NCBI GenBank assembly: GCA_937871985.1
Contig: CALMPB010000138.1
Location: 1-25,360 of the forward strand
DNA length: 25,360 nucleotides
Origin: an uncultured Burkholderiaceae bacterium
GTDB taxonomy: Bacteria; Pseudomonadota; Gammaproteobacteria; Burkholderiales; Burkholderiaceae
Direction: 5' to 3'
Both the position numbers and the translations under genes were made by a program. Shown here one piece after another: positions 8,256 to 23,873 of the stretch. How positions within the stretch are numbered: the first letter of the stretch is position 1; each line of letters starts with the position of its first letter. The notes beneath the pieces are model-generated. The model was not told the DNA's origin and did no database searches. It saw only the letters and a program-made list of their open reading frames with translations.

Positions 8256-8335
8256 ATTGATCGTTGTATAGCCGGCATGCCAGTCGAAAAACATAACAAG
8301 GACCACGGCAAGCCACATGGAGAATGGAGACAAAC

Positions 8336-9388
8336 ATGATTTATCTACGTAACGCATGGTATGCGGCCGCCCGGGACGACGAAGTTGCCGTGGGGCAGCT
8401 TTTGGCCCGGACTTTTCTGGATCAACCCGTCGTGCTTTATCGCGATGAGGCCGGCCGGCCGGTCGCGCTTGCCGATCGCTGCCCGCACCGGTTTGCGCCC
8501 TTGTCCAAGGGCAAGATCATCGACAACGCCATTCAGTGCCCGTACCATGGCCTGCGTTTCGGGTCGACGGGCGCCTGTGTGCATAATCCGCACGGCGCCA
8601 TTCCCAGGGCGGCGCATGTCGCCTCGTTTCCTTTGCTGGAAAAGTACGGCCTGGTCTGGATATGGATGGGCGACCCCGACGAGGCCGACCCGGCAAAGCT
8701 GCCCGATTTCAGCATCATCGCCGATCACGACAATTATGCGATCGTGAACGGCTACCTCAGGATCGAGGCCAACTACCAGTTGGTTACCGACAACCTGCTC
8801 GATCTCAGCCATGCGCAGTTCGTGCACACCTTCATAGGAAACTCCGATTCCAGCGATCGCAACACCTTCGAGATGAAGGTAGAGGGCAATACGGTATGGG
8901 CCTACAACAATATGCCCGGAGAGCCGCCCACCAAGCTTTGGCAGCTGATGTGGAAGAGCTCGGCCAAGGTGGGCGACCGGCGCGCCAATATGCGCTGGGA
9001 TGCGCCTTCGCATCTGCTGCTGGACGTGGGCTTCACCGATTGCGGCCGTCCCACGTCCGAGGGGCCGACCATGTTCAGTGCGCACATCCTCACCCCCGAA
9101 ACCGAAAGGACGACCCATTATTTCTGGGCGGCCGCGCGCGACACCATGCGGGACGACGAGGAACTGAGCAAGATAATCTGGAAGGGCATCGACGGCGCCT
9201 TCCGCCTGGAAGACGAACCCATGATCGAAGACTGCCAGGCTCGCATGCAAACCGTCGACCTCATGTCGCTGAACCCGGTCATGCTGACCACCGATGCGGC
9301 CGCCATTCGCGCGCGGCGGGTGTTGGCCATGATGATCGAAAAGGAGCAATCGGCTAATTTGGCAGCCCCCGCGCCCGTGGCCTCCTGA
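8336..9388 (+). CDS. Rieske non-heme iron oxygenase, VanA-type alpha subunit (copy 1)
   Basis: Terminal oxygenase of 350 residues in the vanillate O-demethylase / toluenesulfonate monooxygenase size class. The Rieske [2Fe-2S] ligands are C49, H51, C68 and H71 (CPH, then CPYH). The mononuclear iron histidines are H159 and H164 in DNLLDLSHAQFVH, with D156 as the bridging acid between subunits; the third ligand is probably the Asp of MIEDCQ near the C-terminus. I chose ATG 8336 because GGAGACAA immediately precedes it; an in-frame ATG at 8324 lies inside that site. Electrons must come from a reductase not present here. It follows the flavin hydroxylase and ends just before a terminator, so the pair may act in sequence on one substrate. 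Confidence 0.92.
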   Translation: MIYLRNAWYAAARDDEVAVGQLLARTFLDQPVVLYRDEAGRPVALADRCPHRFAPLSKGKIIDNAIQCPYHGLRFGSTGACVHNPHGAIPRAAHVASFPLLEKYGLVWIWMGDPDEADPAKLPDFSIIADHDNYAIVNGYLRIEANYQLVTDNLLDLSHAQFVHTFIGNSDSSDRNTFEMKVEGNTVWAYNNMPGEPPTKLWQLMWKSSAKVGDRRANMRWDAPSHLLLDVGFTDCGRPTSEGPTMFSAHILTPETERTTHYFWAAARDTMRDDEELSKIIWKGIDGAFRLEDEPMIEDCQARMQTVDLMSLNPVMLTTDAAAIRARRVLAMMIEKEQSANLAAPAPVAS

Positions 9389-10300: not shown

Positions 10301-11077
10301 ATGCCACGCCGCATTATCGATATTTCAGTGTCCCTCGATTCGGATATCGCCTCGGATCCGCCGGGCCACATGCCTGAAGTCAAGTATTTCAACCACCATG
10401 CCACGGCGGAAAATGTCGTCTCGTTCTTTCCGGGAGCAAAAGTCGAAGACCTGCCGGGCGGCGAGGGGTGGGCCATAGAACGGCTCAACGTATCCACCCA
10501 TAATGGCACGCACCTGGATGCTCCCTACCACTTCCATTCGACCATGGACAACGGCCAGCGGGCCATCACCATCGACGAAGTACCGCTGGAGTGGTGTTTC
10601 AATCCGGGCGTGAAGCTCGACTTCCGGCATCTTCCCGACGGTCACGTGGTCACCGCCGCCGAAGTCGAAGCCGAGCTGGCGCGCATCGGCCATACGCTGA
10701 AGCCGTACGACATCGTCGTGGTCAATACCGCGGCTGGCGCGCGCTATGGGCAACCAGATTACGTTTCAGCCGGCTGTGGCATGGGTGACGAGGCCACGCT
10801 TTACCTGACCGAGCGCGGTGTGCGGGTTACGGGCACCGATGCCTGGAGCTGGGATGCCCCCTTCGTGCATACGGCCAAGCGCTTTGCCGAAAACCACGAC
10901 GCCTCCATCATCTGGGAGGGGCATCGCGCCGGCATGAAGCGCGCCTATTGCCATCTGGAAAAACTCGGCAACCTGCACAGCCTGCCCCCCGACGGTTTCA
11001 TGATCGCCTGCTTTCCGTACAAGATACGCGGCGCCTCGGCCGGGTTTACGCGTGCGGTAGCCATATTCGAAGACTAG
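10301..11077 (+). CDS. Cyclase-family (kynurenine formamidase-like) metal hydrolase
   Basis: A 258-residue protein of the cyclase family, whose best-known members are kynurenine formamidase and isatin hydrolase. The hallmark HxGTHxDxPxHF motif is present, with H67, H71, D73 and H77 expected to bind a catalytic metal (Zn or Mn). AGGAG precedes the ATG. Family members hydrolyse amide or lactam/lactone-like bonds in aromatic breakdown. Together with the BKACE gene 52 bases downstream it looks like a lower-pathway unit acting on a ring-opened or cyclic keto compound. The substrate is unknown; a KynB symbol would overstate the evidence because no other kynurenine-pathway gene is near. Confidence 0.88.
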   Translation: MPRRIIDISVSLDSDIASDPPGHMPEVKYFNHHATAENVVSFFPGAKVEDLPGGEGWAIERLNVSTHNGTHLDAPYHFHSTMDNGQRAITIDEVPLEWCFNPGVKLDFRHLPDGHVVTAAEVEAELARIGHTLKPYDIVVVNTAAGARYGQPDYVSAGCGMGDEATLYLTERGVRVTGTDAWSWDAPFVHTAKRFAENHDASIIWEGHRAGMKRAYCHLEKLGNLHSLPPDGFMIACFPYKIRGASAGFTRAVAIFED

Positions 11078-11129
11078 GGCCCGTTAACACATATCGATGA
11101 ATCGCGAAGCCATTCACAAGGAGCAAACC

Positions 11130-12095
11130 GTGTCTGAAGCATCCACAGCAAAACCCAGGAAATCCCCGGCGCCCAAGGTCATCATCACCTGCGCGGTGAC
11201 CGGCGGCATCCACACGCCCACCATGTCGGATGCGCTGCCCTACAAGCCCGAAGACATCGCCAGCCAGGCGATTGCCGCCGCTCAGGCGGGAGCGGCCATT
11301 CTCCATTTGCATGCGCGCGATCCGCAGGACGGGCGGCCGACGCCCGATCCCGACGTATTCATGCAGTTTCTGCCGCGCATCAAAGAGGCCACCGACGCCG
11401 TCATCAACGTCACGACCGGCGGGGGGCTGAACATGACCGTCGAGCAGCGCCTGGCCGCGCCGCTGATTGCCAGGCCCGAAATGTGTTCGCTGAACATGGG
11501 ATCGATGAATTTCGGCATCTACCCTATGGCCGACCGCTACAAGAACTGGAAGTTCGACTGGGAAGAAAGCTATCTGCGCAACACCGACGATTTCATCTTC
11601 CGCAATACCTTCCGCGACATCGAGCGCATCCTCAAGATGCTGGGCGAAGAGCATGGCACTCGTTTCGAGCACGAGTGCTACGACGTCGGCCATTTGTACA
11701 ACGTTGCCCATTTCGTCGATCGGGGCCTGCTGAAGCCGCCGTTCTTCGTGCAGATGATTTTCGGCATCCTGGGCGGAATCGGCGCGGAGCTCGACAACCT
11801 GCTTTTCATGAAGCGCACCGCCGACAAACTATTCGGCGATGACTACCGCTGGTCGGTGCTGGCGGCTGGACGGCATCAAATGAATTTCGCGACGCAGGCC
11901 GCTTTGCTGGGCGGCAGTGTGCGGGTAGGCCTGGAAGACAGCCTGTATATCGGCAGGGGCGCGCTGGCGGCATCCAACGCAGAGCAGGTCTCCAAGGTGC
12001 GCGGCATCGTCGAGAGCCTGGGGCTTGAAATCGCCACACCCGACGAGGCCCGCGCCATGCTGGGTTTGAAAGGCGCGGCAAACGTCGGATTTTGA
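11130..12095 (+). CDS. BKACE (3-keto-5-aminohexanoate cleavage enzyme family, DUF849)
   Basis: About 321 residues from the GTG at 11130, chosen because AAGGAG lies at 11118-11123; an ATG at 11097 adds 11 unlikely residues. BKACE proteins are Zn-dependent TIM barrels that condense a beta-keto acid with acetyl-CoA and split it into acetoacetate and a new CoA ester. Visible family marks: VIITCAVTGG near residue 18, the metal-binding HLH at 59-61 followed by ARD, the INVTTGGG strand, and GGSVRVGLEDS near 261-271, whose Glu is the usual metal ligand. Beside the cyclase gene it suggests that a beta-keto acid is produced in this pathway. The specific beta-keto acid cannot be told from sequence. Confidence 0.9.
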   Translation: MSEASTAKPRKSPAPKVIITCAVTGGIHTPTMSDALPYKPEDIASQAIAAAQAGAAILHLHARDPQDGRPTPDPDVFMQFLPRIKEATDAVINVTTGGGLNMTVEQRLAAPLIARPEMCSLNMGSMNFGIYPMADRYKNWKFDWEESYLRNTDDFIFRNTFRDIERILKMLGEEHGTRFEHECYDVGHLYNVAHFVDRGLLKPPFFVQMIFGILGGIGAELDNLLFMKRTADKLFGDDYRWSVLAAGRHQMNFATQAALLGGSVRVGLEDSLYIGRGALAASNAEQVSKVRGIVESLGLEIATPDEARAMLGLKGAANVGF

Positions 12096-12187: not shown

Positions 12188-13150
12188 TTATGAGTCGCCG
12201 GGCTGGCGCTGTGCCTTGCGGTATGCATTGGGCGGCAAGCCATGCTGGCGCTTGAAGGCTTCCCGAAAAGCGGTTTCCGACTGATAGCCCAGCTCGTTCG
12301 AAATGACGGCGACCGGCCGTTTGCTTGCGGCCAGCAGTTCGGCGGCCAATTGCATGCGCCATTCCGTCAGGTAGTCGATGGGCGTTCGGCCCAGCAGGTT
12401 CTGGAAGCGTTCGGCAAAGGCCGAGCGCGACATGCCGGCGGAGTTGGCAAGCGACGCCACCGTCCAGTCCTCGCCCGGGCTGGCATGAATGGCGGACAGC
12501 GCTTTGCCGATGCGCGCATCCAGCAGTCCGCGCAGCCAGCCGGTCGGCGGGTTGGGCGTCGAAAGAATGTAGGCCCGGATAAGGCTCTGGAACAAAAGCT
12601 CGGCGAGGCGGGTGGCGATGGCAACGTAGCCGTGTTTGGCGTCGGCCTCCTCGGCGGTCAGGAACTGCGTGGCCGTTGTCACCCATTGTTCTGTGCCGCT
12701 GCTCTTGCCGGGGAGAACAATGAGATCGGGCAGCGACGACAGCAAGGCGTTTCGGTGTTCATCGCGAAAGGAAAAGGCCAGGGAGACGATGCGGCTTTCT
12801 TTGCCCGACCCTCCCAGGCGCAGGAGCAGCGGGGCGGCAAGGCTGTTGCCGCGCGAATAAAAAGGCAATGCGCGATCGTGCCAGAGTTCGCTGGCGGTAA
12901 TGAGGGGGACGTTGGGTGCGGAAGCGATGACGCAGCGTCCGCCATGCGGCAGGAGCACGGTATCGCCCGGTTCCAGGAGCACTGGCGGCCTATCGTCGGG
13001 AAGCACCCAGCAATGCCCTTCGGCGACGCAGTAGCAGAAAGCGGGCTCGAAGCCGTTGATGTCCAGTCCCCACGGCTCGGTCAGCCTGAAGTGGCCGATC
13101 GCCGAGGACTCGACCTTCAGCGACAGCAGGACATCACTCAATAAATCCAT
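12188..13150 (-). CDS. AraC-family regulator with cupin sensor domain (copy 1)
   Basis: A 320-residue regulator. The N-terminal half (about residues 1-190), starting MDLLSDVLLSLKVES, matches the cupin-type ligand domain found in AraC regulators near catabolic genes, with the GHCWVLPDDRPPVLLEPGDTVLLPHGG-like core near 47-73. The C-terminal half carries two helix-turn-helix units: WTVASLANSAGMSRSAFAERF near 231-251, and VAVISNELGYQSETAFREAF near 279-298. AAGAAGAG is the likely ribosome site. It is divergent from Rieske 2 across 202 bases and probably activates that five-gene operon. The second AraC protein in the window (18950-19960) is a clear paralogue with the same layout. Confidence 0.92.
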   Translation of the reverse strand: MDLLSDVLLSLKVESSAIGHFRLTEPWGLDINGFEPAFCYCVAEGHCWVLPDDRPPVLLEPGDTVLLPHGGRCVIASAPNVPLITASELWHDRALPFYSRGNSLAAPLLLRLGGSGKESRIVSLAFSFRDEHRNALLSSLPDLIVLPGKSSGTEQWVTTATQFLTAEEADAKHGYVAIATRLAELLFQSLIRAYILSTPNPPTGWLRGLLDARIGKALSAIHASPGEDWTVASLANSAGMSRSAFAERFQNLLGRTPIDYLTEWRMQLAAELLAASKRPVAVISNELGYQSETAFREAFKRQHGLPPNAYRKAQRQPGDS

Positions 13151-13352: not shown

Positions 13353-14411
13353 ATGAATTTTCTGCGGAATGCCTGGTACTGCGCCGGCTGGGCTGCGGAT
13401 CTGGGCGCAGAGCCCATCACCAGGACCTATTTGAACGAGCCTGTGCTGTTGTATCGCCTGCGGGACGGCAGGGCGGTCGCCATCGGCGAGCGCTGCCCGC
13501 ATCGTTTTGCTCCTTTGCACAAGGGCAAGCTGCGGGATGACTGCATAGAATGCCCCTACCACGGCCTGCGGTTCGATGCCTCGGGGGCCTGTGTGCACAA
13601 CCCCCATGGCGATGGCGCGATTCCCAAGGCGGCAAGGGTCAAGGCCTATCCCCTGGTAGAGCAGTACGGCGCGCTATGGATATGGATGGGTGATCCCTCT
13701 TTGGCCGGCGAGTCGACGCTGATCGATGCGCATGAAATCGAGAAGCGCGAGGGCTGGGATGTCGTGAGGGGCCAATTGAACGTGCAGGGCAACTACGAGC
13801 TGCTGGCCGATAACCTGCTGGATTTGAGCCACGTTCCGTTCCTGCATCCATTCTTGTCTTTCGACGGTCCGCCGCCGCCAGGGTTTTCGTTTCATAGCGA
13901 ACTCAAGCAGGATGGCAACACGGTATATGCCATCAATCTTCTCACCAATACGCCTGTCAGTCCCCTTTACAAGCTGCTTTGGGACAATCCGCCGGAAGTC
14001 GGCGAGATGCGGGCCCATATGCGCTGGGATGCGCCGTGCACGCTCATGCTGGATACGGGCATGAATACCGTCGGAGGCTCCCGCGAAGATGGGCCATCGC
14101 TGCCCACGGCGCATTTCCTGACTCCGGAAACCGAAACATCGACGCATTACTTCTGGGCGCAGGCCCGTGATCGCAAGGTCGGCGATGAAGCCATGAGCGC
14201 GCTGCTGGCGAAAGGCGTGAACGATGCTTTCCAGAACGAAGATGAACCCATGATCGAGGACTGCCAGCGGCTGATGGGAACACCCGACCTGATGTCGCTA
14301 AAGCCGGTGTTGTTGCAGACCGATGCGCCCGCGATACGAGCGCGGCGCGTGCTTGCCTCCTTGCGTGAGCGCGAGCAAAAGCCGGCTGTGCGGGCTGAAG
14401 TTTCTGCATGA
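13353..14411 (+). CDS. Rieske non-heme iron oxygenase, VanA-type alpha subunit (copy 2)
   Basis: A 352-residue terminal oxygenase. The Rieske cluster ligands are C48, H50, C67 and H70; the catalytic iron histidines are H160 and H165 in DNLLDLSHVPFLH, with bridging D157. AAGGAGACAAGCC gives a strong start. It is the first gene of an operon with FAH-family, 2-hydroxyacid dehydrogenase, enolase and kinase genes, so it should carry out the opening step, a hydroxylation or oxidative demethylation. It is similar throughout to the other Rieske proteins here, including the HNPHGDGAIP and MGDP blocks. No reductase partner is encoded in the operon. Confidence 0.92.
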   Translation: MNFLRNAWYCAGWAADLGAEPITRTYLNEPVLLYRLRDGRAVAIGERCPHRFAPLHKGKLRDDCIECPYHGLRFDASGACVHNPHGDGAIPKAARVKAYPLVEQYGALWIWMGDPSLAGESTLIDAHEIEKREGWDVVRGQLNVQGNYELLADNLLDLSHVPFLHPFLSFDGPPPPGFSFHSELKQDGNTVYAINLLTNTPVSPLYKLLWDNPPEVGEMRAHMRWDAPCTLMLDTGMNTVGGSREDGPSLPTAHFLTPETETSTHYFWAQARDRKVGDEAMSALLAKGVNDAFQNEDEPMIEDCQRLMGTPDLMSLKPVLLQTDAPAIRARRVLASLREREQKPAVRAEVSA

Positions 14412-14464
14412 GGCCGATTGACGTTTGCCGGCGAAACCATTCGAACATCTGAAGAATAGAATTT

Positions 14465-15508
14465 ATGGAAAAATTGGACTTGTCTTTCCCGGCCTTCGGA
14501 CTGGGCCGGTTTTCTTTGGCCGGCTGCAGGCCTTTTATGGCCGTGGTATCGGGAGATTCCATTGTTGCATTGAGTGCCCTGGAGGCATTGGGCAGGCGCA
14601 TAGGGGTGGCTTTGCCGGAGGCGGGCGCCATGCATTCGCCGTTCGAGCAATGGCCAATGTCGTTTGATGCCTTGTGCAGGATCGTGACCGAGTTCGAGGG
14701 CAGCGAGCTGTTCCAGAAGCTGAAAACACCACTTGGCGGTCTAAAGACTCATGCACCATTTCAGCCGCGCCAGGCGTTCTGCACGATTGCCAATTATCGT
14801 TCCGGCGCTGTGCAGGCCAGGCTGGACGCGGCTCGCGATGGTGATTCCGCGTCAAAACTTGAGTTGCGCGCGGCGGCCCTTGCGGCGTGCGAACAGCGCT
14901 TGCGTTCCGGCCAGCCCTATGTATCGAACAAACTGCCTTCGTCGGTGATCGGGCCTTTCGATGCCATCGCCTTGCCGGCCCATGTCCGACAACCCGACTG
15001 GGAGGTGGAATTGGGTGTCGTCATCGGCAAAGAGGCCCGCAATGTGAAGCGCCAGGATGCCATGAATCATGTGGCCGGCTATACCGTGGTGAACGATATA
15101 ACGGTGCGCGAACTGGTGTCCCGCCATGAGCCGCAAGGCATGGGAACGGACTGGCTGGTGGCCAAGAACGCGCCCGGTTTCCTGCCCATCGGCCCCTGGT
15201 TCGTTCCCGCGGCGTTCGTTCCAGACCCCTATGCATTGCGCATGACGTTGCATTTGAACGGCGAATTGATGCAGGATGAAAAAGCCGGCGATATGATCTT
15301 CGATATCGCGGCACAAATAGAATATGTGTCCCGGCACGTTCGGCTATTGCCGGGAGATTTGCTGTGCACCGGTGCGCCCGCGGGATTCGGCTTGCATTAC
15401 GGCCGCTTTCTCGAGCCGGGAGACGTGGTGCAGGCAGGCATTGGCGGCCTCGGCAGCCAGCGCAACGTGTGCCGTCGCGAGGGTGCGGCGCAGGCCGAAA
15501 TTGACTGA
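14465..15508 (+). CDS. Fumarylacetoacetate hydrolase (FAH)-family protein
   Basis: A 347-residue enzyme with the FAH fold in its C-terminal two thirds. Metal-binding acids are visible in DWEVELGVVIG near residues 178-188 and in NDITVRE near 210-216, with further family blocks GTDWLVAKNAPGFLPIGPW near 227-245 and PGDLLCTGAPAGFG near 297-310. The family cleaves C-C bonds of acylpyruvates and fumarylacetoacetate, or hydrates or decarboxylates related dienoates, after aromatic ring opening. It begins 53 bases after Rieske 2 and ends 7 bases before the dehydrogenase gene. An acylpyruvate-type hydrolysis would give a 2-keto acid, a plausible substrate for that dehydrogenase. No obvious ribosome site precedes ATG 14465. 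Confidence 0.9.
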   Translation: MEKLDLSFPAFGLGRFSLAGCRPFMAVVSGDSIVALSALEALGRRIGVALPEAGAMHSPFEQWPMSFDALCRIVTEFEGSELFQKLKTPLGGLKTHAPFQPRQAFCTIANYRSGAVQARLDAARDGDSASKLELRAAALAACEQRLRSGQPYVSNKLPSSVIGPFDAIALPAHVRQPDWEVELGVVIGKEARNVKRQDAMNHVAGYTVVNDITVRELVSRHEPQGMGTDWLVAKNAPGFLPIGPWFVPAAFVPDPYALRMTLHLNGELMQDEKAGDMIFDIAAQIEYVSRHVRLLPGDLLCTGAPAGFGLHYGRFLEPGDVVQAGIGGLGSQRNVCRREGAAQAEID

Positions 15509-15515
15509 GGAATCT

Positions 15516-16508
15516 ATGGCATTGCATGCAGAACAAGCTGGAACGGTGGTATTGACGGACTATGCCTGGCCGGATCTGGAAATCGAGCGCCGCATCATCG
15601 AGGGCGCCGGCTTTCACTTGGTAGCGGGCGCTTCCGAGCCGGCCCCCGAAGCGCAAATCGACGAACTGATCATGCAGCATGACCCCGTCGCCATCATGAC
15701 ATGCTGGGCAAGGGTTTCCGCCCGGGCGATCACGGCCTCTCCCAATTTGAAGATCGTGGCCAGGCTGGGGGTGGGTCTGGACAATATCGCCGTCGAGACG
15801 GCGACCCGCCAGGGCGCATGGGTGACGAATGTGCCGGACTATTGTGTGGAAGAGGTGTCCGACCACGCCGTGGGCATGGTGTTGGCGTGGACGCGGGGTT
15901 TGATCCGGTTCGACCGGGATGTCAGGCAGGGGCGCTGGGATCCGGCGGCGGCACGCTTGCGCCGTCTGTCCACACTGACTTGCGGCATTGTCGGCTACGG
16001 CCGGATCGGGCATCGCACGGCGGCGAAGCTAAAGGCGTTTGGTGCCCGCCTGTTGACCCAGGCGCGCCCGGGCAAGCAACCCGACGGCGACATCGAGTGT
16101 GTCGAACTGGACGAACTGATGCGCCGCTGCGACGTCGTCATTGTGCATGTCCCGCTCAATGGCGAAACCCGGCATTTGATCGATGCACGGCGTCTTGGCT
16201 TGATGAAGCAGGGCTCCATGCTTGTCAACGTCAGCAGGGGCGGGGTGGTGGACACCGGAGCGCTCGTCGAGGCGCTGGAATCCGGCCGCCTGGCGGGCGC
16301 AGGCCTGGACGTGCTCGAGGATGAGCCGAACGTGCCCGATGCGCTGAAGGCGCAGCCCGGCGCCATCCTGACGCCGCACGTTGCCTTCTCTTCCGATGCA
16401 TCGCTGCTCGAGTTGCGTGAGCGCGCGTGCGAAGACGTGGTGCGCGCCTTGCGTGGCGAACCTGTGCATTATCCCTGTAATGAACCAATCGCCCGCCAGG
16501 GCCGATAG
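15516..16508 (+). CDS. D-2-hydroxyacid dehydrogenase (PGDH/CtBP family)
   Basis: About 330 residues from ATG 15516, with TGAGGA overlapping the upstream stop as ribosome site. The NAD(P)-binding motif GYGRIG is near residue 159. The catalytic triad of the family is visible: Arg in VSRGG near 239, Glu in LEDEP near 268 and His in TPHVA near 287. Preceding signatures GLDNI and VSDHAVGM are also typical. The enzyme interconverts a 2-keto acid and a D-2-hydroxyacid. In the operon it lies between a possible 2-keto-acid-producing FAH protein and an enolase/kinase pair that would need a hydroxyacid, so reduction of the keto acid is the suggested direction. Phosphoglycerate or hydroxypyruvate use is also possible. 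Confidence 0.9.
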   Translation: MALHAEQAGTVVLTDYAWPDLEIERRIIEGAGFHLVAGASEPAPEAQIDELIMQHDPVAIMTCWARVSARAITASPNLKIVARLGVGLDNIAVETATRQGAWVTNVPDYCVEEVSDHAVGMVLAWTRGLIRFDRDVRQGRWDPAAARLRRLSTLTCGIVGYGRIGHRTAAKLKAFGARLLTQARPGKQPDGDIECVELDELMRRCDVVIVHVPLNGETRHLIDARRLGLMKQGSMLVNVSRGGVVDTGALVEALESGRLAGAGLDVLEDEPNVPDALKAQPGAILTPHVAFSSDASLLELRERACEDVVRALRGEPVHYPCNEPIARQGR

Positions 16509-16541
16509 CTTCTCTTCGAAATCCAATTTACCTGATTCAAC

Positions 16542-17879
16542 ATGAAATCTTCCAGATCCATCCGTACCGTGCATGCCCGCCAAATACTTGATTCCCGCGG
16601 CCGGCCGACCGTCGAGGTCGACATCGTCCTGGAGGACGGGTCGTTCGGCCGTGCGGCTGTGCCCAGCGGCGCCTCCACCGGCGCGGCCGAGGCGCATGAG
16701 TTGCGCGATGGCGTGGCGCAGCGGTACGAGGGCCGAGGCGTGCTGAAGGCCGTAGGCAACGTCAATGCGGAAATCGCGAATGCAATCAAGGCCTGGGACG
16801 CCGCGGATCAAAGCGGCCTGGATGCGCGCTTGCGCGAACTGGACGGCACCGATCAGCTTGCGCGGCTCGGCGCCAATGCGGTGCTCGGGGTTTCGCTGGC
16901 CGCATGCCGCGCGGCGGCGGCCAGCGCGCGGCAGCCGTTGCATGAACGGCTCGCCGAACTGGCCGGTGTGAAATCGCCGACGATGCCCATGCCCATGGTC
17001 AATATTCTAAGCGGGGGCTTGCACGCGGGTCGCGGCATGGACATACAGGATTTCCTGGCGATTCCCGCCAGCGCCGGCTCCATGGACGAGGCCATTCACG
17101 TCGTATCACGCATTCGAAGCGCCGCGGCCGAGGTCATGCAAAAGCGCGGCCTTACCACGCTGCTGGCGGACGAAGGGGGGCTCAGTCCGGGATTCCGGAC
17201 GGGCCGGGAGGCCCTGGAACTCATGGTGGAAGCCACCGAGCATGCCGGCCTGATCCCGGGGACGGACATGGTCATTGCCATCGATGCCGCCGCCAGCTCC
17301 TTGGCGCAGTCCGGTGGCTTCTATCATCTGGCTCGCGAAGAAAGGCAATGCAGCAGCGACGAGATGATCGCCATGCTGCAGTCCTGGGTGGCCGACTTTC
17401 CCATCGTTTCCATCGAAGACGGCTTGGGCGAAGAAGATTGGTCCGGATGGAGGCGGTTGACCGAGGCCTTGGGGGGGAAGGTGCGCCTGATCGGCGACGA
17501 TTTGTTCACGACGAATGTATCCCGGCTGGAAAAAGGTATTTCGCAAGGCGTGGCCAATGGCGTGCTGGTCAAGGTCAATCAGAACGGCACCTTGTCCGGA
17601 ACGCTGGAAGTCATTGCGCGAGCCCGGGAAGCCGGCTACACGCCGGTCGTATCCGCCCGTTCGGGCGAAACGGAGGACAGCTTCATCGCGGATCTTGCCG
17701 TGGGCGCGGCGGCGGGCCAGATCAAGATCGGTTCGCTGAGGTGTTCCGACAGGCTGTCCAAATACAACCAGCTTTTGCGCATCGAAGAATACGGCGCGTA
17801 CCGATTCGCCGGCATGGATTCGATTCGGGGAGAAAACTTGCGCAAAGGGGGCGGTAATGCCGGCTACCGTGCATCCTGA
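16542..17879 (+). CDS. Enolase-family paralogue with altered active site
   Basis: A 445-residue protein that aligns by eye with enolase over its full length (usual 425-435). Conserved: the flexible loop PSGASTG at 41-47, loop H161, E211 in ADEGG, metal ligands D248, E292 and the GDD at 318-320, K344, the RSGETED block at 373-379 and K395. Changed: the yeast E168 position is D170 (QDF instead of QEF), and the histidine of SHRSGETED (yeast H373) is A372. These positions bind substrate or aid catalysis, so activity on ordinary 2-phosphoglycerate is doubtful while Mg binding and the Lys base are kept. The gene sits inside a catabolic operon and overlaps the kinase gene by 23 bases, so it is unlikely to be the housekeeping eno. 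Confidence 0.9.
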   Translation: MKSSRSIRTVHARQILDSRGRPTVEVDIVLEDGSFGRAAVPSGASTGAAEAHELRDGVAQRYEGRGVLKAVGNVNAEIANAIKAWDAADQSGLDARLRELDGTDQLARLGANAVLGVSLAACRAAAASARQPLHERLAELAGVKSPTMPMPMVNILSGGLHAGRGMDIQDFLAIPASAGSMDEAIHVVSRIRSAAAEVMQKRGLTTLLADEGGLSPGFRTGREALELMVEATEHAGLIPGTDMVIAIDAAASSLAQSGGFYHLAREERQCSSDEMIAMLQSWVADFPIVSIEDGLGEEDWSGWRRLTEALGGKVRLIGDDLFTTNVSRLEKGISQGVANGVLVKVNQNGTLSGTLEVIARAREAGYTPVVSARSGETEDSFIADLAVGAAAGQIKIGSLRCSDRLSKYNQLLRIEEYGAYRFAGMDSIRGENLRKGGGNAGYRAS

Positions 17880-18879
17880 CTCCATCGAGCCCGTCCTGCG
17901 GGATTTCCTGGTTCGTTGCGGGTTGGCGAAATCCGGCGAGGAAATCCGCTGGACGCCGCTGACCGGGGGCGTATCTTCCGACATTTGGCGGGTGGATCTG
18001 CCAGGGCGTTCGTTGTGCGTCAAGCGCGCGCTTTCCAAGTTGAAGGTCGCCGCGGACTGGCAGGCGCCGGTATCGCGCAACGCCTATGAATGGGCCTGGC
18101 TGAATTTCGCCAGCCGGTGCCGGCCCCAGGCGGTTCCACGGCCCCTGGCGCACGATGAGCAGGCGGGCTTGTTTGCCATGGAGTTCCTCGATCCTGCCGA
18201 TCACCCGGTCTGGAAAACCCAGTTGATGCAGGCCGAGGTGCGGGTGGACGTTGCCGCTTCGGTGGGCGAGCTGCTGGCGCAGCTGCATGCGGCAAGCGCC
18301 TTTGATCCCGAATTGGAAGCCGCTTTCAATACCACGGATAATTTCCACGCCATGCGCATGGATCCCTATTTGCTTGAAACGGGGCGCAAGCATCCCGGCC
18401 TTGCCGGCCAGCTCGAGCGCCTGGTGAAAAAGACGCTGGGCTTGCGCATTGCGCTCGTCCACGGCGATATCAGCCCGAAGAATATTCTGGTGGGCCCCAA
18501 GGGGCCGGTCATCGTCGATGCCGAGTGCGCCTGGTTCGGCGATCCGGCATTCGATGTCGCGTTCTGCCTGAACCATTTCCTGCTGAAGTGCCTGGTATGG
18601 CCGCGGCGCAGCGCCGACTACCTGGCGGCCTTCGAAGCATTCCAGCGCTCGTACATGGAGCAGGTGGCCTGGGAGCCGCGCGAGGAAATCGAAGGCCGGG
18701 CCGCCGCCTTGCTGCCGGCATTGATGCTGGCCCGCGTGGACGGCAAGTCGCCCGTGGAGTATCTGACCGACGAAGCGCAAAAAAACATAGTGCGCGGCGT
18801 GGCCGCGCCCATGGTGTCGGCGCCGCCTAAGCGGCTGGCCGAAGTCGCCTCGCGCTGGCGCGAGGTCTTTGATGCCTGA
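17857..18879 (+). CDS. APH-family small-molecule phosphotransferase
   Basis: A 340-residue kinase of the aminoglycoside-phosphotransferase/choline-kinase fold. The glycine-rich N-lobe GGVSSDIWRV is at 37-46, the ATP lysine is K56 in CVKRA, the Brenner motif HGDISPKN is at 202-209 with catalytic D204, and the second metal motif DAECAWFGDPAFD begins at D221. The N-lobe sequence VKRALSKL followed by R-x-x-YE resembles methylthioribose kinases more than antibiotic kinases. It starts inside the enolase gene, with AAAGGGGG upstream, a strong sign of coupled translation. Its likely job is to phosphorylate a hydroxylated pathway intermediate for the enolase; antibiotic resistance is not supported by the context. 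Confidence 0.9.
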   Translation: MPATVHPDSIEPVLRDFLVRCGLAKSGEEIRWTPLTGGVSSDIWRVDLPGRSLCVKRALSKLKVAADWQAPVSRNAYEWAWLNFASRCRPQAVPRPLAHDEQAGLFAMEFLDPADHPVWKTQLMQAEVRVDVAASVGELLAQLHAASAFDPELEAAFNTTDNFHAMRMDPYLLETGRKHPGLAGQLERLVKKTLGLRIALVHGDISPKNILVGPKGPVIVDAECAWFGDPAFDVAFCLNHFLLKCLVWPRRSADYLAAFEAFQRSYMEQVAWEPREEIEGRAAALLPALMLARVDGKSPVEYLTDEAQKNIVRGVAAPMVSAPPKRLAEVASRWREVFDA

Positions 18880-18949: not shown

Positions 18950-19960
18950 TCATGATTCCAGGCTTGAGTGCATGGGCGAGCCAGACACCGCGCTCGAGCT
19001 GGCGTTCCGGCTGTGCTGGCTGGCGTATTTAAGGGGCGAGAGCCCGAAGCGGCGTTTGAACACATGGCGGAACGCGGCTTCCGAGCTATAGCCGACACGT
19101 TCGGCGATGGCGCTGATGGATTCCTTGCGGGCGACGACATGCTCGGCGGCCACGTGCATGCGCCATGCCAATAGATAGCTGGCCGGCGTCTGCCCGACCA
19201 GTTCCGAGAAGCGCCGCGCGAAGGTCGGGCGCGACATCCCCACTTCGACAGCCAAGGCAGTGGTTGTCCAGTCCTGTTCCGGGCGGGCATGGATCGCCGC
19301 CAGAGCCCGTCCGATTTGTGCATCGGACAGTCCCCGCACCCAGTTGGGTGACAGAGTGGGGGTGGACAATACGTGCGCGCGCAGGAAGCTGCTGAAGATC
19401 AACTCGGCCAGATGGGTGGCTGTGGCCAGATAGCCGGCTTTGGCATCGTTTTTTTCCGCGGCGAGAAATTCCAGGGTGGCGGGCAGCCAGGGAAAATGCC
19501 CGCTGCCGCTTTCCCGCAGCAGGATGGTGCTTGGCAGGATGGACAGCAGCGGGCTATGCGCAGGGTCGCGCAGGAAGTAGGCAATGGCAAGCAGGCGCGG
19601 CGCGCTATGGCTGCCGTCGAAGCCGAAATGAATCGGCGCATGGCGCCTGGTTTCCGGGCCGAAATCGGGCAGACCCTGGGTCTCCCAGTATTCCAGCAGC
19701 GGCGTCAGCGGGGCATCCGGGGTCGACGCCAGGGCGTGCGCATGCCCGTGCAGGATCAAGACCGAATCGCCATGGTTCAGCCGTATTGGATCGTCGCCGG
19801 GGGAGAGCAGCCAGCACGGCGGGCCGATCACGCTGTATGCAAAGACCATCGATGCGGGAACGTCGGGCATGGCGAAGCCCCACCCGTCGTTCGCGTGAAA
19901 GATACCAATGGAATTGGCCTCGATGGTCGCGGAAAGCAGCACCTCCCCGAGCAAGTCCAT
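18950..19960 (-). CDS. AraC-family regulator with cupin sensor domain (copy 2)
   Basis: A 336-residue paralogue of the AraC protein at 12188-13150: both begin MDLL-x-x-VLLS and share a cupin-type sensor half and two C-terminal helix-turn-helix units. Here these are WTTTALAVEVGMSRPTFARRF near 233-253, and SISAIAERVGYSSEAAFRHVF near 280-300, followed by GLSPLKYAS. AAGGAA is the ribosome site. It is divergent from Rieske 3 across 141 bases that contain a pair of 20-base-spaced direct repeats fitting AraC binding. It probably activates Rieske 3 in response to that enzyme's substrate. Confidence 0.92.
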   Translation of the reverse strand: MDLLGEVLLSATIEANSIGIFHANDGWGFAMPDVPASMVFAYSVIGPPCWLLSPGDDPIRLNHGDSVLILHGHAHALASTPDAPLTPLLEYWETQGLPDFGPETRRHAPIHFGFDGSHSAPRLLAIAYFLRDPAHSPLLSILPSTILLRESGSGHFPWLPATLEFLAAEKNDAKAGYLATATHLAELIFSSFLRAHVLSTPTLSPNWVRGLSDAQIGRALAAIHARPEQDWTTTALAVEVGMSRPTFARRFSELVGQTPASYLLAWRMHVAAEHVVARKESISAIAERVGYSSEAAFRHVFKRRFGLSPLKYASQHSRNASSSAVSGSPMHSSLES

Positions 19961-20031: not shown

Positions 20032-20101
20032 ACGTTTTCCATAGACTGGCATGCATCGCCGGCGGATTGCGCGCGGCGGGTAAACAAGAGTGGAGACAAA
20101 A

Positions 20102-21130
20102 ATGACTTACTTGAGAAATGTCTGGTATATCGCGGCCTGGGGCAACGAGATTGAAGAGGGCGGCATGCTGGGGCGCACGATCCTGGACGAGCCCATTGCG
20201 TTCTATCGCAAGAAGAACGGCGAAGTTGCCGCCATCGGCGGCCGATGTCCGCACCGCTTCGCGCCCCTGCACATGGGCAAGTTGGTGGACGACTGTGTGC
20301 AATGCCCCTATCACGGCCTGCGCTTCGACGAGCAGGGAAAGTGCGTGCACAATCCGCACGGCGACGGTGCGATTCCCAGGGCGGCGCAGGTAACGTCCTA
20401 CCCCGTTTGCGAGCGCCACCTGGCTGTCTGGATATGGATGGGCGATGCGGCGCTGGCCGATCCTGGCCTGATTCCCGATTACTCTTTCTTGAGCAAGGCC
20501 AAGCCCACGGCACGGAATATCGGCTATTTGCCCACTCGCGCCAATTACGAATTATTGAGCGACAACATCATGGATCTCAGCCATGTCGACTTCCTGCATC
20601 CAGCCACGCTGGGTGGCGGCGCATTGAGCCGAACCAAGGCGAAAGTCAGCGAGATGGGCGATGGCCGCATCCATATTCTGTGGGAGGCCAAGAACGAAAT
20701 CGCTCCCCCGGCGTTCGCCGCGCATTTGCCCGATCCCGCAGCGCCGGCGGATTTATGGACCGACGTAATCTGGTCCGCGCCCGCGCTAATGCATTTGTCG
20801 ACTGGGGTAGCGCCCGCCGGGGAACCTTCCGCCCAGGGTATCGGCAGTTCCAACCTGCACATGATGACCCCCGAAACCGAGACCACCACCCATTATTTCT
20901 TTGCCAACACGCGCGACTTCCTGACCGACGACGGCGATTTCAACGCCATGCTCGACCGCATCCTGACCGGTGTGTTTTCCAGCGAGGACAAGCCGATGGT
21001 GGAAGGTCAGCAACGCCTGATCGGAACCGAGGAATTCTGGTCCCTGAAGCCCGTGCTTTTGTCGGGCGACGCCGGCGCGGTGCGGGTGCGCAGGGCGCTG
21101 CAGGAAATGATACGGGCCGAACAGGGCTAG
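20102..21130 (+). CDS. Rieske non-heme iron oxygenase, VanA-type alpha subunit (copy 3)
   Basis: A 342-residue terminal oxygenase. Rieske ligands are C49, H51, C68 and H71; catalytic iron histidines are H161 and H166 in DNIMDLSHVDFLH with bridging D158. ATG 20102 is preceded by GGAGACAA; a GTG at 20090 in frame lies before that site and is less likely. It stands alone as a single-gene unit: the AraC gene is divergent and the next gene, tetR, is convergent with only five bases between the stops. The mid-protein substrate region (residues about 170-260) differs clearly from copies 1, 2 and 4, suggesting a different substrate. Confidence 0.92.
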   Translation: MTYLRNVWYIAAWGNEIEEGGMLGRTILDEPIAFYRKKNGEVAAIGGRCPHRFAPLHMGKLVDDCVQCPYHGLRFDEQGKCVHNPHGDGAIPRAAQVTSYPVCERHLAVWIWMGDAALADPGLIPDYSFLSKAKPTARNIGYLPTRANYELLSDNIMDLSHVDFLHPATLGGGALSRTKAKVSEMGDGRIHILWEAKNEIAPPAFAAHLPDPAAPADLWTDVIWSAPALMHLSTGVAPAGEPSAQGIGSSNLHMMTPETETTTHYFFANTRDFLTDDGDFNAMLDRILTGVFSSEDKPMVEGQQRLIGTEEFWSLKPVLLSGDAGAVRVRRALQEMIRAEQG

Positions 21131-21817: not shown

Positions 21818-21848
21818 CGGGAAATTGAAAATCACAAAGGAGGAGGCC

Positions 21849-22874
21849 ATGAAATTCCTGAGAAACGCCTGGTACGTGGCGGCGTGGGACAGTGAAATCG
21901 AGGCGGGAGCGCTGTTTCAGCGCGTTTTGCTCAACGAGCCCGTGTTGATGTTCCGGGACGAGGCCGGCAAGGTGCAGGCCATATCCGACCGCTGCCCGCA
22001 CCGCTTTGCGCCCTTGCATATGGGCAAGCACCTGGGAAACGCTGTGCAATGCCCATACCATGGGCTGGAATTCAATGGGCAAGGGCGGTGTACGCACAAT
22101 CCACATGGCGATGGCGCCATCCCCAGGGCGGCGGTCGTCAAGACCTATCCCGTCATCGAAAAATACAGCCTGATCTGGATCTGGATGGGAGACCCCGACA
22201 AAGCTGATGAAAGCCGTATTCCTGATTTTTCGAGTCTGGACCCCGAGCATTTCCATGTCGGCAAGCGCTACCTGCATGTGCAGGCCAATTACGTGCTGGA
22301 AACCGACAACATCATGGATCTGTCGCACATCCAGTATGTGCATCCGGGCACCCTTGGCAGCAGCGGGGTCAGCCAAAGCAAGACCAGCGTGGAGCAACAG
22401 GGTGACAGTGTATGGTCATACCGTGAGGTGCAGAACGAGATCATGCCCGACTTCCTGTACGAGGCAATGAACATTCCCAAAGGCACTCGCGTCGACAGAT
22501 GGATAGACGTGCGCTGGGATGCCCCCGCGAACATGATGCTCTTCGCCGGCGCCGTTCCAACCGGCCGGCCGCGTGAAGAAGGCGTCAACAATCCCTTGCC
22601 TCATCTGTTCTCGCCCGAAACGGACACGACGACGCATTACTGGTTTGCCTTCAGCCTGCCCAAAGCCATGGGCGACATGGCGGCGGGAATCGTGGAGCAG
22701 CAGGTGGCGTCGCTGGAGGTGCCGTTTCGCACTGAAGATCTGCCCATGCTGCAGGCCCAGCAGAACATGATGGGCGAATCCGAGTTCTGGGACTTGAAGC
22801 CGGTGCTGCTGGTCGGCGATGCCGGGGCCGTACGCGCCCGGCGCACCCTGGACAGGTTGATTGCTGCTGAGTAG
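21849..22874 (+). CDS. Rieske non-heme iron oxygenase, VanA-type alpha subunit (copy 4)
   Basis: A 341-residue terminal oxygenase. Rieske ligands are C49, H51, C68 and H71; catalytic iron histidines are H160 and H165 in DNIMDLSHIQYVH with bridging D157. The ATG at 21849 follows AAAGGAGGAGGCC, the strongest ribosome site in the window; an earlier in-frame ATG at 21825 lies before that site and is unlikely. Downstream blocks VPTGRPREEG and SPETDTTTHYWF match vanillate-demethylase-type proteins, more closely than the other copies do. It is a single-gene unit controlled from the palindrome upstream; the next gene is convergent. A reductase is needed in trans. Confidence 0.93.
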   Translation: MKFLRNAWYVAAWDSEIEAGALFQRVLLNEPVLMFRDEAGKVQAISDRCPHRFAPLHMGKHLGNAVQCPYHGLEFNGQGRCTHNPHGDGAIPRAAVVKTYPVIEKYSLIWIWMGDPDKADESRIPDFSSLDPEHFHVGKRYLHVQANYVLETDNIMDLSHIQYVHPGTLGSSGVSQSKTSVEQQGDSVWSYREVQNEIMPDFLYEAMNIPKGTRVDRWIDVRWDAPANMMLFAGAVPTGRPREEGVNNPLPHLFSPETDTTTHYWFAFSLPKAMGDMAAGIVEQQVASLEVPFRTEDLPMLQAQQNMMGESEFWDLKPVLLVGDAGAVRARRTLDRLIAAE

Positions 22875-22913: not shown

Positions 22914-23873
22914 TCAGGCCGATCCTTTCAGGGCATTGAGAATGAGGTCCTTCAACGTGCCGTCGTTGCGAAACCCGGCCTTCTCCGACGCTGGAACGTC
23001 TATGGGGGGCTGCCGGCCGAATACAGCTTCGACGGCTTCGATGGGTTTATAACGTATTCGTTGCAGCGTTTCGGGTCCGAACAACTCGGCAATGCCGCCG
23101 ACCAGTTCCCCCATCGACGTTCGGATGACTGGCAGCATCCAGGTACGTCGCTGCTCGACGGCCTCCTTGGGCAGCAGGGCGGCGTGCAGCAGATTCTCGG
23201 CGATGCAACGGGCCGACATCAACCAGACAGTGGAGGCGGCGCTGATGGGGCAGGTATATGGCCGTCCGGCGGCCAGCTCGCGGATCAGGTCGCTCATGAA
23301 AATGGAAATGGCGCCGTTGGGTGCCGGCGGGCGGGCCACGATGCCGGGCAGGCGCAGCGATCTGCCGTCTATCCAGCCGCGCCGGCTGAAATCGTCGATC
23401 AGTATTTCGCCGATCATTTTCTGCGCGCTATAGCTCATATTGTTGGGACGCGCGGGCGTGTCGTCGGTGACGATGTCGGGGATGGGCGCGCCGAACACGC
23501 CGATGGTGCTGGCAAATACCACCACGGGCGGCCTGGCCTGGTGGCGCAACGATTCAAGCAGTTCCAGGGTTGCGTCCAGATTGATGGCGCGCCCAAGCTC
23601 ATAGTTTTTCTCGGCCAGGCCGCCAGGGATGCTGGCAAGATGGAAAACCAGATCGAATGGTTCGGCCAACACCTTCTTCAGCAAGGCGCTGTCGCCAATG
23701 CTGCCGGTGATCTGCCGAAAGCATGGGTGGGGCGCGGGATTGTCGAACTGGATATCGAGCAGCGTTGCGGTTCCGATTTCGATTGGCGAGTGGCCCGCGG
23801 CAAGCAGTGCGGCCAGCCGGTTGACAAGCGTCTGACCGACGAAGCCGTTGGCGCCGGTGATGAGGACATTCAT
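22914..23873 (-). CDS. NAD-dependent epimerase/dehydratase, DenD-like (D-erythronate dehydrogenase family)
   Basis: A 319-residue extended SDR enzyme. The NAD motif GANGFVG is at 7-13; the catalytic pair is Y148 and K152 in SYSAQK, with S122/T123 as the third member. Length, the FHLASIPGGLAEKNYELG block near 77-94 and the RLPGIVARP block near 173-181 match D-erythronate dehydrogenases (DenD), which oxidise D-erythronate at C2, and related UxaE-like enzymes. The rest of the erythronate pathway (OtnK, OtnC, OtnI) is not here, so a sugar-acid role is not certain. AGGAG is a good ribosome site. It lies downstream of the LysR gene on the same strand, 224 bases away, and could have its own promoter there. 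Confidence 0.85.
   Translation of the reverse strand: MNVLITGANGFVGQTLVNRLAALLAAGHSPIEIGTATLLDIQFDNPAPHPCFRQITGSIGDSALLKKVLAEPFDLVFHLASIPGGLAEKNYELGRAINLDATLELLESLRHQARPPVVVFASTIGVFGAPIPDIVTDDTPARPNNMSYSAQKMIGEILIDDFSRRGWIDGRSLRLPGIVARPPAPNGAISIFMSDLIRELAAGRPYTCPISAASTVWLMSARCIAENLLHAALLPKEAVEQRRTWMLPVIRTSMGELVGGIAELFGPETLQRIRYKPIEAVEAVFGRQPPIDVPASEKAGFRNDGTLKDLILNALKGSA

What the first reader, a model, noticed from the sequence alone, without database searches (positions are those of the whole stretch)
13353..18879. Five-gene operon pairing a kinase and an enolase paralogue with aromatic catabolic enzymes
Seen: Rieske oxygenase, FAH-family hydrolase, D-2-hydroxyacid dehydrogenase, enolase paralogue and APH-type kinase on one strand with gaps of 53, 7, 33 and -23 bases, headed by a divergent AraC gene. 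Known: FAH-family acylpyruvases give 2-keto acids; PGDH-family enzymes reduce these to D-2-hydroxyacids; enolase dehydrates 2-phospho-hydroxyacids. Inference: a keto acid is reduced, phosphorylated by the kinase and dehydrated to a substituted phosphoenolpyruvate. A phospho-activated dehydration step in aromatic breakdown is not a route I know. A plain alternative is hydroxypyruvate to glycerate to 2-phosphoglycerate to PEP with a non-standard glycerate 2-kinase.
Basis: partly seen in the sequence, partly recalled or inferred. Interest (0 to 1): 0.78.

Follow-up and report, generated by a model that had tools for sequence, protein, structure and literature searches.

The report
Kinase paired with an altered enolase
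This window carries an operon that joins a kinase gene to an altered enolase gene; the same pair recurs across distant bacteria with the same two active-site changes, which suggests an uncharacterised phosphorylate-then-dehydrate step in the breakdown of ring-cleavage products and sugar acids.

Summary
The five genes are present where described. The conserved core is two of them, the kinase (KIN) and the enolase paralogue (ENO); a D-2-hydroxyacid dehydrogenase and FAH hydrolases often join it, while the Rieske gene is local. Of 300 genomes of the Variovorax order, KIN occurs in 42 and a motif diagnostic of this enolase in 41, 39 in common; alphaproteobacterial and actinobacterial samples behave alike. 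Every kinase-linked enolase readable at both sites has Asp for Glu168 and Ala for His373 (yeast numbering); nine other active-site residues are kept. All 27 relatives' genomes checked also hold a canonical Glu/His enolase, including eight of 1.2-1.5 Mb. So the pair probably does not make PEP from D-2-phosphoglycerate. Best reading: KIN phosphorylates the 2-hydroxyl of a short 2,3-dihydroxy acid, and ENO eliminates from it to give PEP or a PEP homologue. But the pair also sits in sugar-acid clusters, so it is not specific to aromatic breakdown, and the substrate (C3-substituted, L-configured or other) is unsettled. Exceptions exist: some kinase relatives lack this enolase. Ten text searches of open papers listed no description of the pair.

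The parts
12188..13150 (-). AraC-family regulator (Cupin_6 + HTH_18), divergent from the operon
   Evidence: a 48% identical relative lies upstream and divergent in the similar Pseudomonas locus L043
13353..14411 (+). VanA-type Rieske oxygenase (Rieske + VanA_C); local member, not part of the widely kept core
   Evidence: Rieske genes of the window gave a kept match in 3 of 80 loci; of eight loci rechecked only L043, one of those three, has one
14465..15508 (+). FAH-family hydrolase (start uncertain)
   Evidence: best solved relative is L-2,4-diketo-3-deoxyrhamnonate hydrolase
15516..16508 (+). D-2-hydroxyacid dehydrogenase, a subfamily annotated 'C-terminal binding protein' in relatives
   Evidence: relatives at 55% identity or more in 24 of 80 kinase loci
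16542..17879 (+). variant enolase (ENO): Asp170 and Ala372 at the places of Glu168 and His373 of yeast enolase
17049..17051 (+). codon of Asp170 (Glu168 in canonical enolase)
   Evidence: D in 75 of 75 variant rows, E in 16 of 16 canonical rows
17655..17657 (+). codon of Ala372 (His373 in canonical enolase)
   Evidence: A in 75 of 75 variant rows, H in 16 of 16 canonical rows
17857..18879 (+). APH-superfamily small-molecule kinase (KIN), overlapping ENO by 23 bases; predicted methylthioribose-kinase-like fold
   Evidence: Lys56, His202-Gly-Asp204, Asn209 and Asp221 invariant in 22 of 22 aligned members

Best explanation
KIN and ENO are a two-enzyme, phospho-activated dehydration module that different catabolic routes plug into. 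Upstream enzymes (here a Rieske oxygenase, FAH hydrolase and D-2-hydroxyacid dehydrogenase; elsewhere an extradiol dioxygenase or sugar-acid dehydratases) yield a short 2,3-dihydroxy acid. KIN transfers phosphate from ATP to its 2-hydroxyl. ENO, with two Mg ions, Lys345 as base and Glu211 as acid (yeast numbering), removes the C2 proton and the C3 leaving group to give an enol phosphate, PEP or a C3-substituted PEP, that enters central metabolism. Shown by sequence: the pairing, its spread, the altered active site, and a coexisting canonical enolase in relatives. Inferred: each chemical step. My first choice of substrate is a C3-substituted D-2-hydroxy acid (for example a tetronate), because the D-2-hydroxyacid dehydrogenase should set the D configuration at C2 and because, as I recall from yeast enolase structures, Glu168 and His373 lie on the side where the C3 hydroxyl leaves; I give that specific substrate class about 0.4.
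For: Association: ENO in the held stretch of 74 of 80 KIN loci, within 600 bases on the same strand in 52. Of 300 genomes in the order of G005 (a Variovorax), 42 have KIN, 41 the SARSGExED codon motif, 39 both, Fisher p 6e-43; 40 of the 42 KIN regions were fetched and all 40 hold an ENO match, G005 has one about 5 kb away, G255 was not fetched. Of 190 genomes in the class of a Rhizobium, 19 have KIN, 18 the motif, 17 both (counted by eye). Of 197 genomes in the class of a Streptomyces, 16 have the motif; 13 of the 15 fetched are enolases, each with a KIN relative next to it or one gene away. Active site: Asp/Ala in 69 of 69 rows covering both sites, 52 of 52, 13 of 13; these sets overlap. Yeast E168 is one of four catalytic residues listed for 7ENL (PMC4922564, one table passage). 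Redundancy: canonical enolase in 14 of 14 and 13 of 13 genomes. Variant rows are split from canonical ones by a single branch, SH-aLRT 100.
Against: No activity, substrate or phenotype was tested, and the window's own genome is not held, so a canonical enolase there is assumed. ENO still scores 510 bits against the enolase model, cut-off 300, so activity on 2-PG is not excluded. The small-genome actinobacteria gave no match to class I and II glycerate kinases, so KIN could fill that role there. KIN without the motif in the genome occurs: 4 of the 6 genomes behind the ENO-less loci, L029 and L030 with full flanks, and 2 of 19 in the Rhizobium class; the exact motif can miss true members, as in G155. 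In many Alpha- and Betaproteobacteria no catabolic partner was recognised beside the pair. The PEP carboxylase beside the pair in five Rhizobium loci is the only one in the three Rhizobium genomes checked, so it need not mark the product. Pocket geometry was recalled, not modelled.
Confidence: 0.6

Rival explanations
1. Plain D-glycerate route: hydroxypyruvate is reduced to D-glycerate, KIN is an unrecognised class of glycerate 2-kinase, and ENO is a redundant enolase that makes ordinary PEP.
For: The dehydrogenase's PDB matches include glyoxylate/hydroxypyruvate reductases and phosphoglycerate dehydrogenases; no match to class I or MOFRL glycerate kinases in the eight 1.2-1.5 Mb actinobacterial genomes that keep KIN (class III not searched); sugar-acid clusters with FAH hydrolases could release glycerate (inference).
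Against: A canonical enolase is present in 27 of 27 genomes, even at 1.2 Mb, where a redundant copy would not be expected to last; Glu168 and His373 are changed in every member read at both sites; 39 of 42 KIN-bearing genomes of the Variovorax order already have a MOFRL glycerate kinase, against 121 of 258 others.
Confidence: 0.17
2. Stereo-inverted route: KIN is an L-glycerate 2-kinase and ENO dehydrates L-2-phosphoglycerate to PEP; the Glu168/His373 side is rebuilt to take the proton from the other face.
For: Would explain why neither the standard glycerate kinase nor the standard enolase suffices; fits sugar-acid contexts with lactonase, dehydratase, FAH and aldehyde dehydrogenase; product would be plain PEP.
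Against: The linked dehydrogenase family normally makes D-2-hydroxy acids (recalled); the IlvD/EDD enzyme beside the pair in L131 has L-arabinonate dehydratase among its closest PDB matches, which does not by itself predict L-glycerate.
Confidence: 0.2
3. Other leaving group: ENO eliminates something other than water from C3 of a 2-phospho-lactate (an alcohol, a phenol or sulfite), so a 3-O-alkyl, 3-O-aryl or 3-sulfo lactate would yield PEP.
For: The changed residues lie where the C3 group leaves (recalled); four VanA-type Rieske genes in the window point to methoxylated substrates (the fourth, at 21825-22874, judged from its sequence); a TauD/TfdA-family dioxygenase, a family with sulfonate- and ether-cleaving members (recalled), lies three genes after KIN in L004.
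Against: Glu211 and Lys345 are kept; apart from L004 no sulfonate or ether gene was recognised among the neighbours scanned.
Confidence: 0.08

Closest known systems
Enolase (phosphopyruvate hydratase, TIGR01060)
   Same: Both domains, three metal ligands, Lys345, Glu211, Lys396, Arg374, Ser375 and His159 kept.
   Different: Glu168 is Asp and His373 is Ala throughout the kinase-linked class, with further class-wide changes; coexists with a canonical enolase in the relatives checked.
Glycerate kinases, classes I, II (MOFRL) and III (PMC2063504, passages seen)
   Same: Would stand at the same place in a route: a kinase acting on the 2-hydroxyl ahead of an enolase.
   Different: KIN is in the APH/methylthioribose-kinase superfamily and matches neither PF02595 nor PF05161.
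5-Methylthioribose kinase
   Same: Best PDB fold matches (ranks 1-15; TM 0.72-0.80 normalised by query, 16-18% identity) and best NCBIfam match.
   Different: 64 bits against a cut-off of 275; no methionine-salvage gene recognised among the neighbours scanned.
Non-phosphorylative sugar-acid pathways ending in an FAH hydrolase (2,4-diketo-3-deoxy-rhamnonate or -fuconate hydrolase)
   Same: The window FAH and one near the pair in L131 resemble this hydrolase.
   Different: Those pathways, as recalled, end in pyruvate plus lactate or glycolate and have no kinase-enolase step.
Carboxyphosphonoenolpyruvate synthase of phosphinothricin biosynthesis (recalled as an enolase homologue with a new reaction)
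   Same: A precedent for an enolase paralogue with a different substrate (recalled).
   Different: Biosynthetic; its sequence was not compared here.

Membership tests
Enolase (TIGR01060) | Score over the curated cut-off | tested here: met
   510.1 bits, cut-off 300
Enolase (TIGR01060) | Metal ligands D246, E295, D320 and residues H159, E211, K345, R374, S375, K396 | tested here: met
Enolase (TIGR01060) | Catalytic E168 (CSA list for 7ENL, PMC4922564) | tested here: not met
   Asp170 in the window; Asp in 75 of 75 variant rows
Enolase (TIGR01060) | Active-site H373 (its role is recalled; it is not in the CSA list seen) | tested here: not met
   Ala372 in the window; Ala in 75 of 75 variant rows
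Enolase (TIGR01060) | Interconversion of D-2-phosphoglycerate and PEP | not testable with these tools
   needs purified enzyme
Glycerate kinase class I or II | Gly_kinase (PF02595) or MOFRL (PF05161) domain | tested here: not met
   only APH and a sub-cut-off Fructosamin_kin match in KIN
Methylthioribose kinase (TIGR01767) | Score over the curated cut-off | tested here: not met
   64.3 bits, cut-off 275
Methylthioribose kinase (TIGR01767) | Fold | tested here: met
   AlphaFold2 model, mean pLDDT 91.6; best PDB matches are MTR kinases
APH phosphotransferase superfamily (PF01636) | Domain over cut-off and HGDxxxxN...D motif | tested here: met
   74.6 bits, cut-off 23.2; residues invariant in 22 rows
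FAH-family acylpyruvase or diketo acid hydrolase | FAA_hydrolase domain and a specific equivalog over cut-off | tested here: inconclusive
   PF01557 203.5 bits, met; best equivalog NF053535 164.5 bits, cut-off 500, not met
D-2-hydroxyacid dehydrogenase | 2-Hacid_dh and 2-Hacid_dh_C domains | tested here: met
   no specific equivalog reached its cut-off

The most novel reading that the evidence does not exclude
An ancient, single-origin class of enolases, marked by Asp168 and Ala373 and nearly always paired with one kinase family, catalyses a dehydration not yet described: phosphorylated C3-substituted (or L-configured) 2,3-dihydroxy acids to PEP-type enol phosphates, as a portable exit module for ring-cleavage and sugar-acid catabolism across Pseudomonadota and Actinomycetota.
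Probability: 0.5. Interest if true: 0.87.

Novelty: new variant of a known kind. Interest (0 to 1): 0.72.

Why it matters
Members are named 'phosphopyruvate hydratase' or 'enolase' in public records (for example), so an enolase with a changed catalytic residue is being annotated as glycolysis. If the pair does what is proposed, it adds a kinase class and an enolase-type reaction to the routes that carry aromatics and sugar acids into central metabolism, and it is directly testable with two purified proteins and a short panel of hydroxy acids. That genomes of 1.2-1.5 Mb keep both enolases suggests the function is worth its cost.

Tried and rejected
PEP carboxylase as a marker of the product: a PEPC (one scanned, full length; five in the cluster) lies beside the pair in five Rhizobium loci, but it is the only PEPC in the three Rhizobium genomes checked, so it may be the housekeeping gene; not used as support. 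Flavonoid-degradation clusters as the known parent route: two papers were searched for enolase, phosphotransferase, hydroxyacid dehydrogenase and fumarylacetoacetate, with no occurrence. Neighbours that look like bystanders: urease genes in L018 and BrkB in L004, Obg- and ribosomal-protein-like genes in L046, L055, L056 (judged by eye from the sequences printed). Near-identical plasmid copies of the region: none. The pocket: model coordinates cannot be read here, so no ENO model was ordered. Literature: of open-licence PubMed Central full text; listings were read (capped), and five papers were opened for term passages only.

Rows dropped before counts: enolase rows of 395 residues or fewer (under 390 for blast rows); four of 73 rows and three of 55 did not cover both sites (each agreed at the site it had). 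In one search L110 is a 78-residue fragment, and L089 missed my text pattern around Glu168 but is among the 16 canonical rows with Glu. In one search G455 has a second, chance motif match that was not fetched. Exact-motif controls (pattern reversed) matched in one genome in each. In one search five of 133 rows are duplicates.
Full report
What is there. No specific NCBIfam model reached its cut-off for the Rieske, FAH, dehydrogenase or kinase proteins; the enolase model did, 510 bits against 300. The window is 61% G+C and no whole genome is held for it, so the claims about a second, canonical enolase below concern relatives only.

What is conserved. A protein search with KIN and one with ENO returned proteins on contigs of the same lengths, and an FAH search returned several of those lengths again; that is an inference from lengths, not from sequence. 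ENO lies in the held stretch in 74 of 80, within 600 bases on the same strand in 52; a dehydrogenase at least 55% identical to the window's lies in 24, an FAH relative in 16. Of the six loci without ENO, L005 and L036 are short contigs and L041 and L075 lie at a contig or locus end; L029 and L030 have full flanks. The diagnostic motif was found in two of those six genomes, those of L005 and L041. So KIN relatives without this enolase exist; three of the four are MAGs labelled Acidobacteria or Pyrinomonadaceae, though another such MAG (L037) has both.

The strict order FAH - dehydrogenase - ENO - KIN of the window is found in Pseudomonas sp. GM21 (L043), on two Rhodococcus plasmids (L111 and L112) and in an actinomycete (L128): one of 80 loci, two of six plasmid regions read, and one of 57 loci fetched. 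Dehydrogenase - ENO - KIN is also in L026 and L033. A Rieske relative was not found in L111, L112 and L128; in L043 it lies on the opposite strand about 6.5 kb from KIN, near relatives of the window's cyclase (59%) and of its epimerase-like gene at 22914-23873 (44%) and a further FAH.

Genome-level association. In 300 genomes of the order of G005 (the genome of L006, Variovorax; so presumably Burkholderiales) KIN was found in 42. A 27-base degenerate pattern for Ser-Ala-Arg-Ser-Gly-Glu-x-Glu-Asp, which contains Ala373, was found in 41. They coincide in 39, Fisher p 6e-43. Forty of the 42 KIN regions were fetched and all 40 hold an ENO match; G005 has one about 5 kb away; G255 was not fetched, and its motif is on another contig. 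The three KIN genomes without the motif are explained: in G132 and G140 the contig ends inside ENO (L166, L152), and in G155 the enolase is adjacent and has SARSGE but missed the longer pattern (L176). In the two motif genomes without KIN, G066 and G114, the motif lies near a contig start (L142, L143). In 190 genomes of the class of G001 (Rhizobium; presumably Alphaproteobacteria) KIN is in 19, the motif in 18, both in 17, counted by eye; the one motif genome without KIN (G516) matched a different peptide, Ser-Ala-Arg-Thr. In 197 genomes of the class of G009 (Streptomyces; presumably Actinomycetes) the motif is in 16. One is G009 itself, known from L014, where ENO and KIN are some 7 kb apart. 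Of the other 15, fetched, 13 are enolases with a KIN relative next to them or one gene away, down to 31% identity, and two (G469, G456) are chance matches with neither.

The altered active site. Rows covering both sites have Asp at 168 and Ala at 373 in 69 of 69, 52 of 52 and 13 of 13; the sets share some genomes. His159, Glu211, Asp246, Glu295, Asp320, Lys345, Arg374, Ser375 and Lys396 are kept. Comparing 75 variant with 16 canonical rows, further class-wide changes are Gly to Ala just before the Asp-Glu211 pair (75 of 75), Leu to Ala at window residue 195 (74 of 75), Asn to Gly or Ser at 157, Thr to Val or Ile after Lys396. The window's ENO is 41-73% identical to the other kinase-linked enolases and 53% to the canonical yardstick, so the class is about as deep as the split from canonical enolases. 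A tree puts all 104 variant rows on one side of one branch and all 29 canonical rows on the other, SH-aLRT 100 (quick method, long branches present, root by midpoint only). The three best PDB alignments shown for the variant profile are canonical at both sites (3 of 67 matches read).

Not the housekeeping enolase. Fourteen genomes drawn from the loci each have a canonical enolase and a variant, and so do all 13 actinobacterial genomes. Eight of those are 1.2-1.5 Mb, where a redundant enzyme would be unexpected.

Not simply the missing glycerate kinase. MOFRL is over cut-off in 160 of the 300 genomes and in 39 of the 42 with KIN. The opposite holds in the 13 actinobacteria: none has MOFRL, three have class I; class III was not searched. 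So KIN could be the only glycerate-type kinase in some of them, but a second, altered enolase would then still need a reason.

Contexts. (1) Extradiol cluster: a homoprotocatechuate 2,3-dioxygenase-like VOC enzyme (17 of 80 loci) with cupin, CMD, zinc alcohol dehydrogenase and FMN reductase near dehydrogenase, KIN and ENO in Streptomyces, Rhizobium, Variovorax and Paraburkholderia, not every gene in every locus, and VOC, CMD, alcohol dehydrogenase and NAD(P)H oxidoreductase genes annotated near the Rhodococcus operons. (2) Sugar-acid clusters: IlvD/EDD dehydratase with FAH, SDR and aldehyde dehydrogenase in L131 (L132 looks the same by ORF lengths), an SMP-30 lactonase between KIN and ENO plus a mandelate-racemase-type protein next to KIN in L130, another such protein with TctC and TauD-family genes after KIN in L004, and a carbohydrate-type ABC transporter in L133. 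(3) DUF6807 and FAH in L047, L067, L072 and L076, with a DctP-type receptor in L047, L072 and L076 and GFO/IDH/MocA in L047 and L067 (one member of each cluster scanned). (4) No catabolic partner recognised, in many Alpha- and Betaproteobacteria. Pfam was run on 80 selected entries only (one repeated, one a kinase), so no frequencies are claimed for contexts 2 to 4.

Mechanism. Shown: the pairing, the signature, the redundancy in relatives. Inferred: KIN phosphorylates a 2-hydroxyl; ENO performs enolase-type elimination. The conserved bimetal site, Lys345, Glu211 and the phosphate contacts argue for the same chemistry on a related substrate; the loss of Glu168 and His373 argues against D-2-phosphoglycerate. 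I rank a C3-substituted D-hydroxy acid first, L-2-phosphoglycerate second, D-2-phosphoglycerate third and another leaving group fourth. The role of Glu168 and His373 near the C3 hydroxyl is recalled, apart from the CSA listing of E168 (PMC4922564, one table passage).

Novelty. Ten searches of open-licence full text listed no paper on the pair (calls under Tried and rejected). That does not cover subscription journals, and capped listings were not read to the end. I file it as a new variant of a known kind: an enolase-family dehydratase with a new partner and, probably, a new substrate.

Noticed in passing
window 11097-12095: BKACE protein over the cut-off of NCBIfam NF053538, 3,5-dioxohexanoate:acetyl-CoA acetone transferase (539.6 bits, cut-off 430), next to a PF04199 cyclase at 10301-11077; may point to a phloroglucinol-like intermediate (recalled).
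   Followed up: no
window 8324-9388, 13353-14411, 20090-21130, 21825-22874: Four VanA-type Rieske oxygenase genes in 14.5 kb (three by Pfam; the fourth by likeness of its sequence), which suggests successive O-demethylations of a polymethoxylated substrate.
   Followed up: no
window 12188-13150 and 18950-19960: Two similar AraC/Cupin_6 regulators, one at each end of the five-gene operon, both on the minus strand.
   Followed up: no
L043:5492-6535: A 347-aa ORF between two FAH genes in the Pseudomonas GM21 operon has no Pfam match.
   Followed up: partly
L137:4903-5826: A 307-aa protein upstream of KIN-ENO in a small actinobacterial genome has only a partial Peptidase_U32 match and no PDB relative at E 0.1.
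   Followed up: partly
L029, L030: Kinase relatives in two MAGs (Acidobacteria, Pyrinomonadaceae) with full flanks but no variant enolase in the locus and no motif in the genome.
   Followed up: partly
L010, L013, L020, L024, L027: A PEP carboxylase-family gene upstream of dehydrogenase-KIN in five Rhizobium loci; the only PEP carboxylase in the three genomes checked.
   Followed up: partly
L174 (G230): Two kinase copies about 8 kb apart in one genome, with the variant enolase beside one of them.
   Followed up: no
plasmid collection: Enolase-like genes match in 1120 plasmid records, 683 of them Escherichia; 1114 are below 60% identity to this ENO. Why so many plasmids carry an enolase-like gene was not examined.
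   Followed up: no
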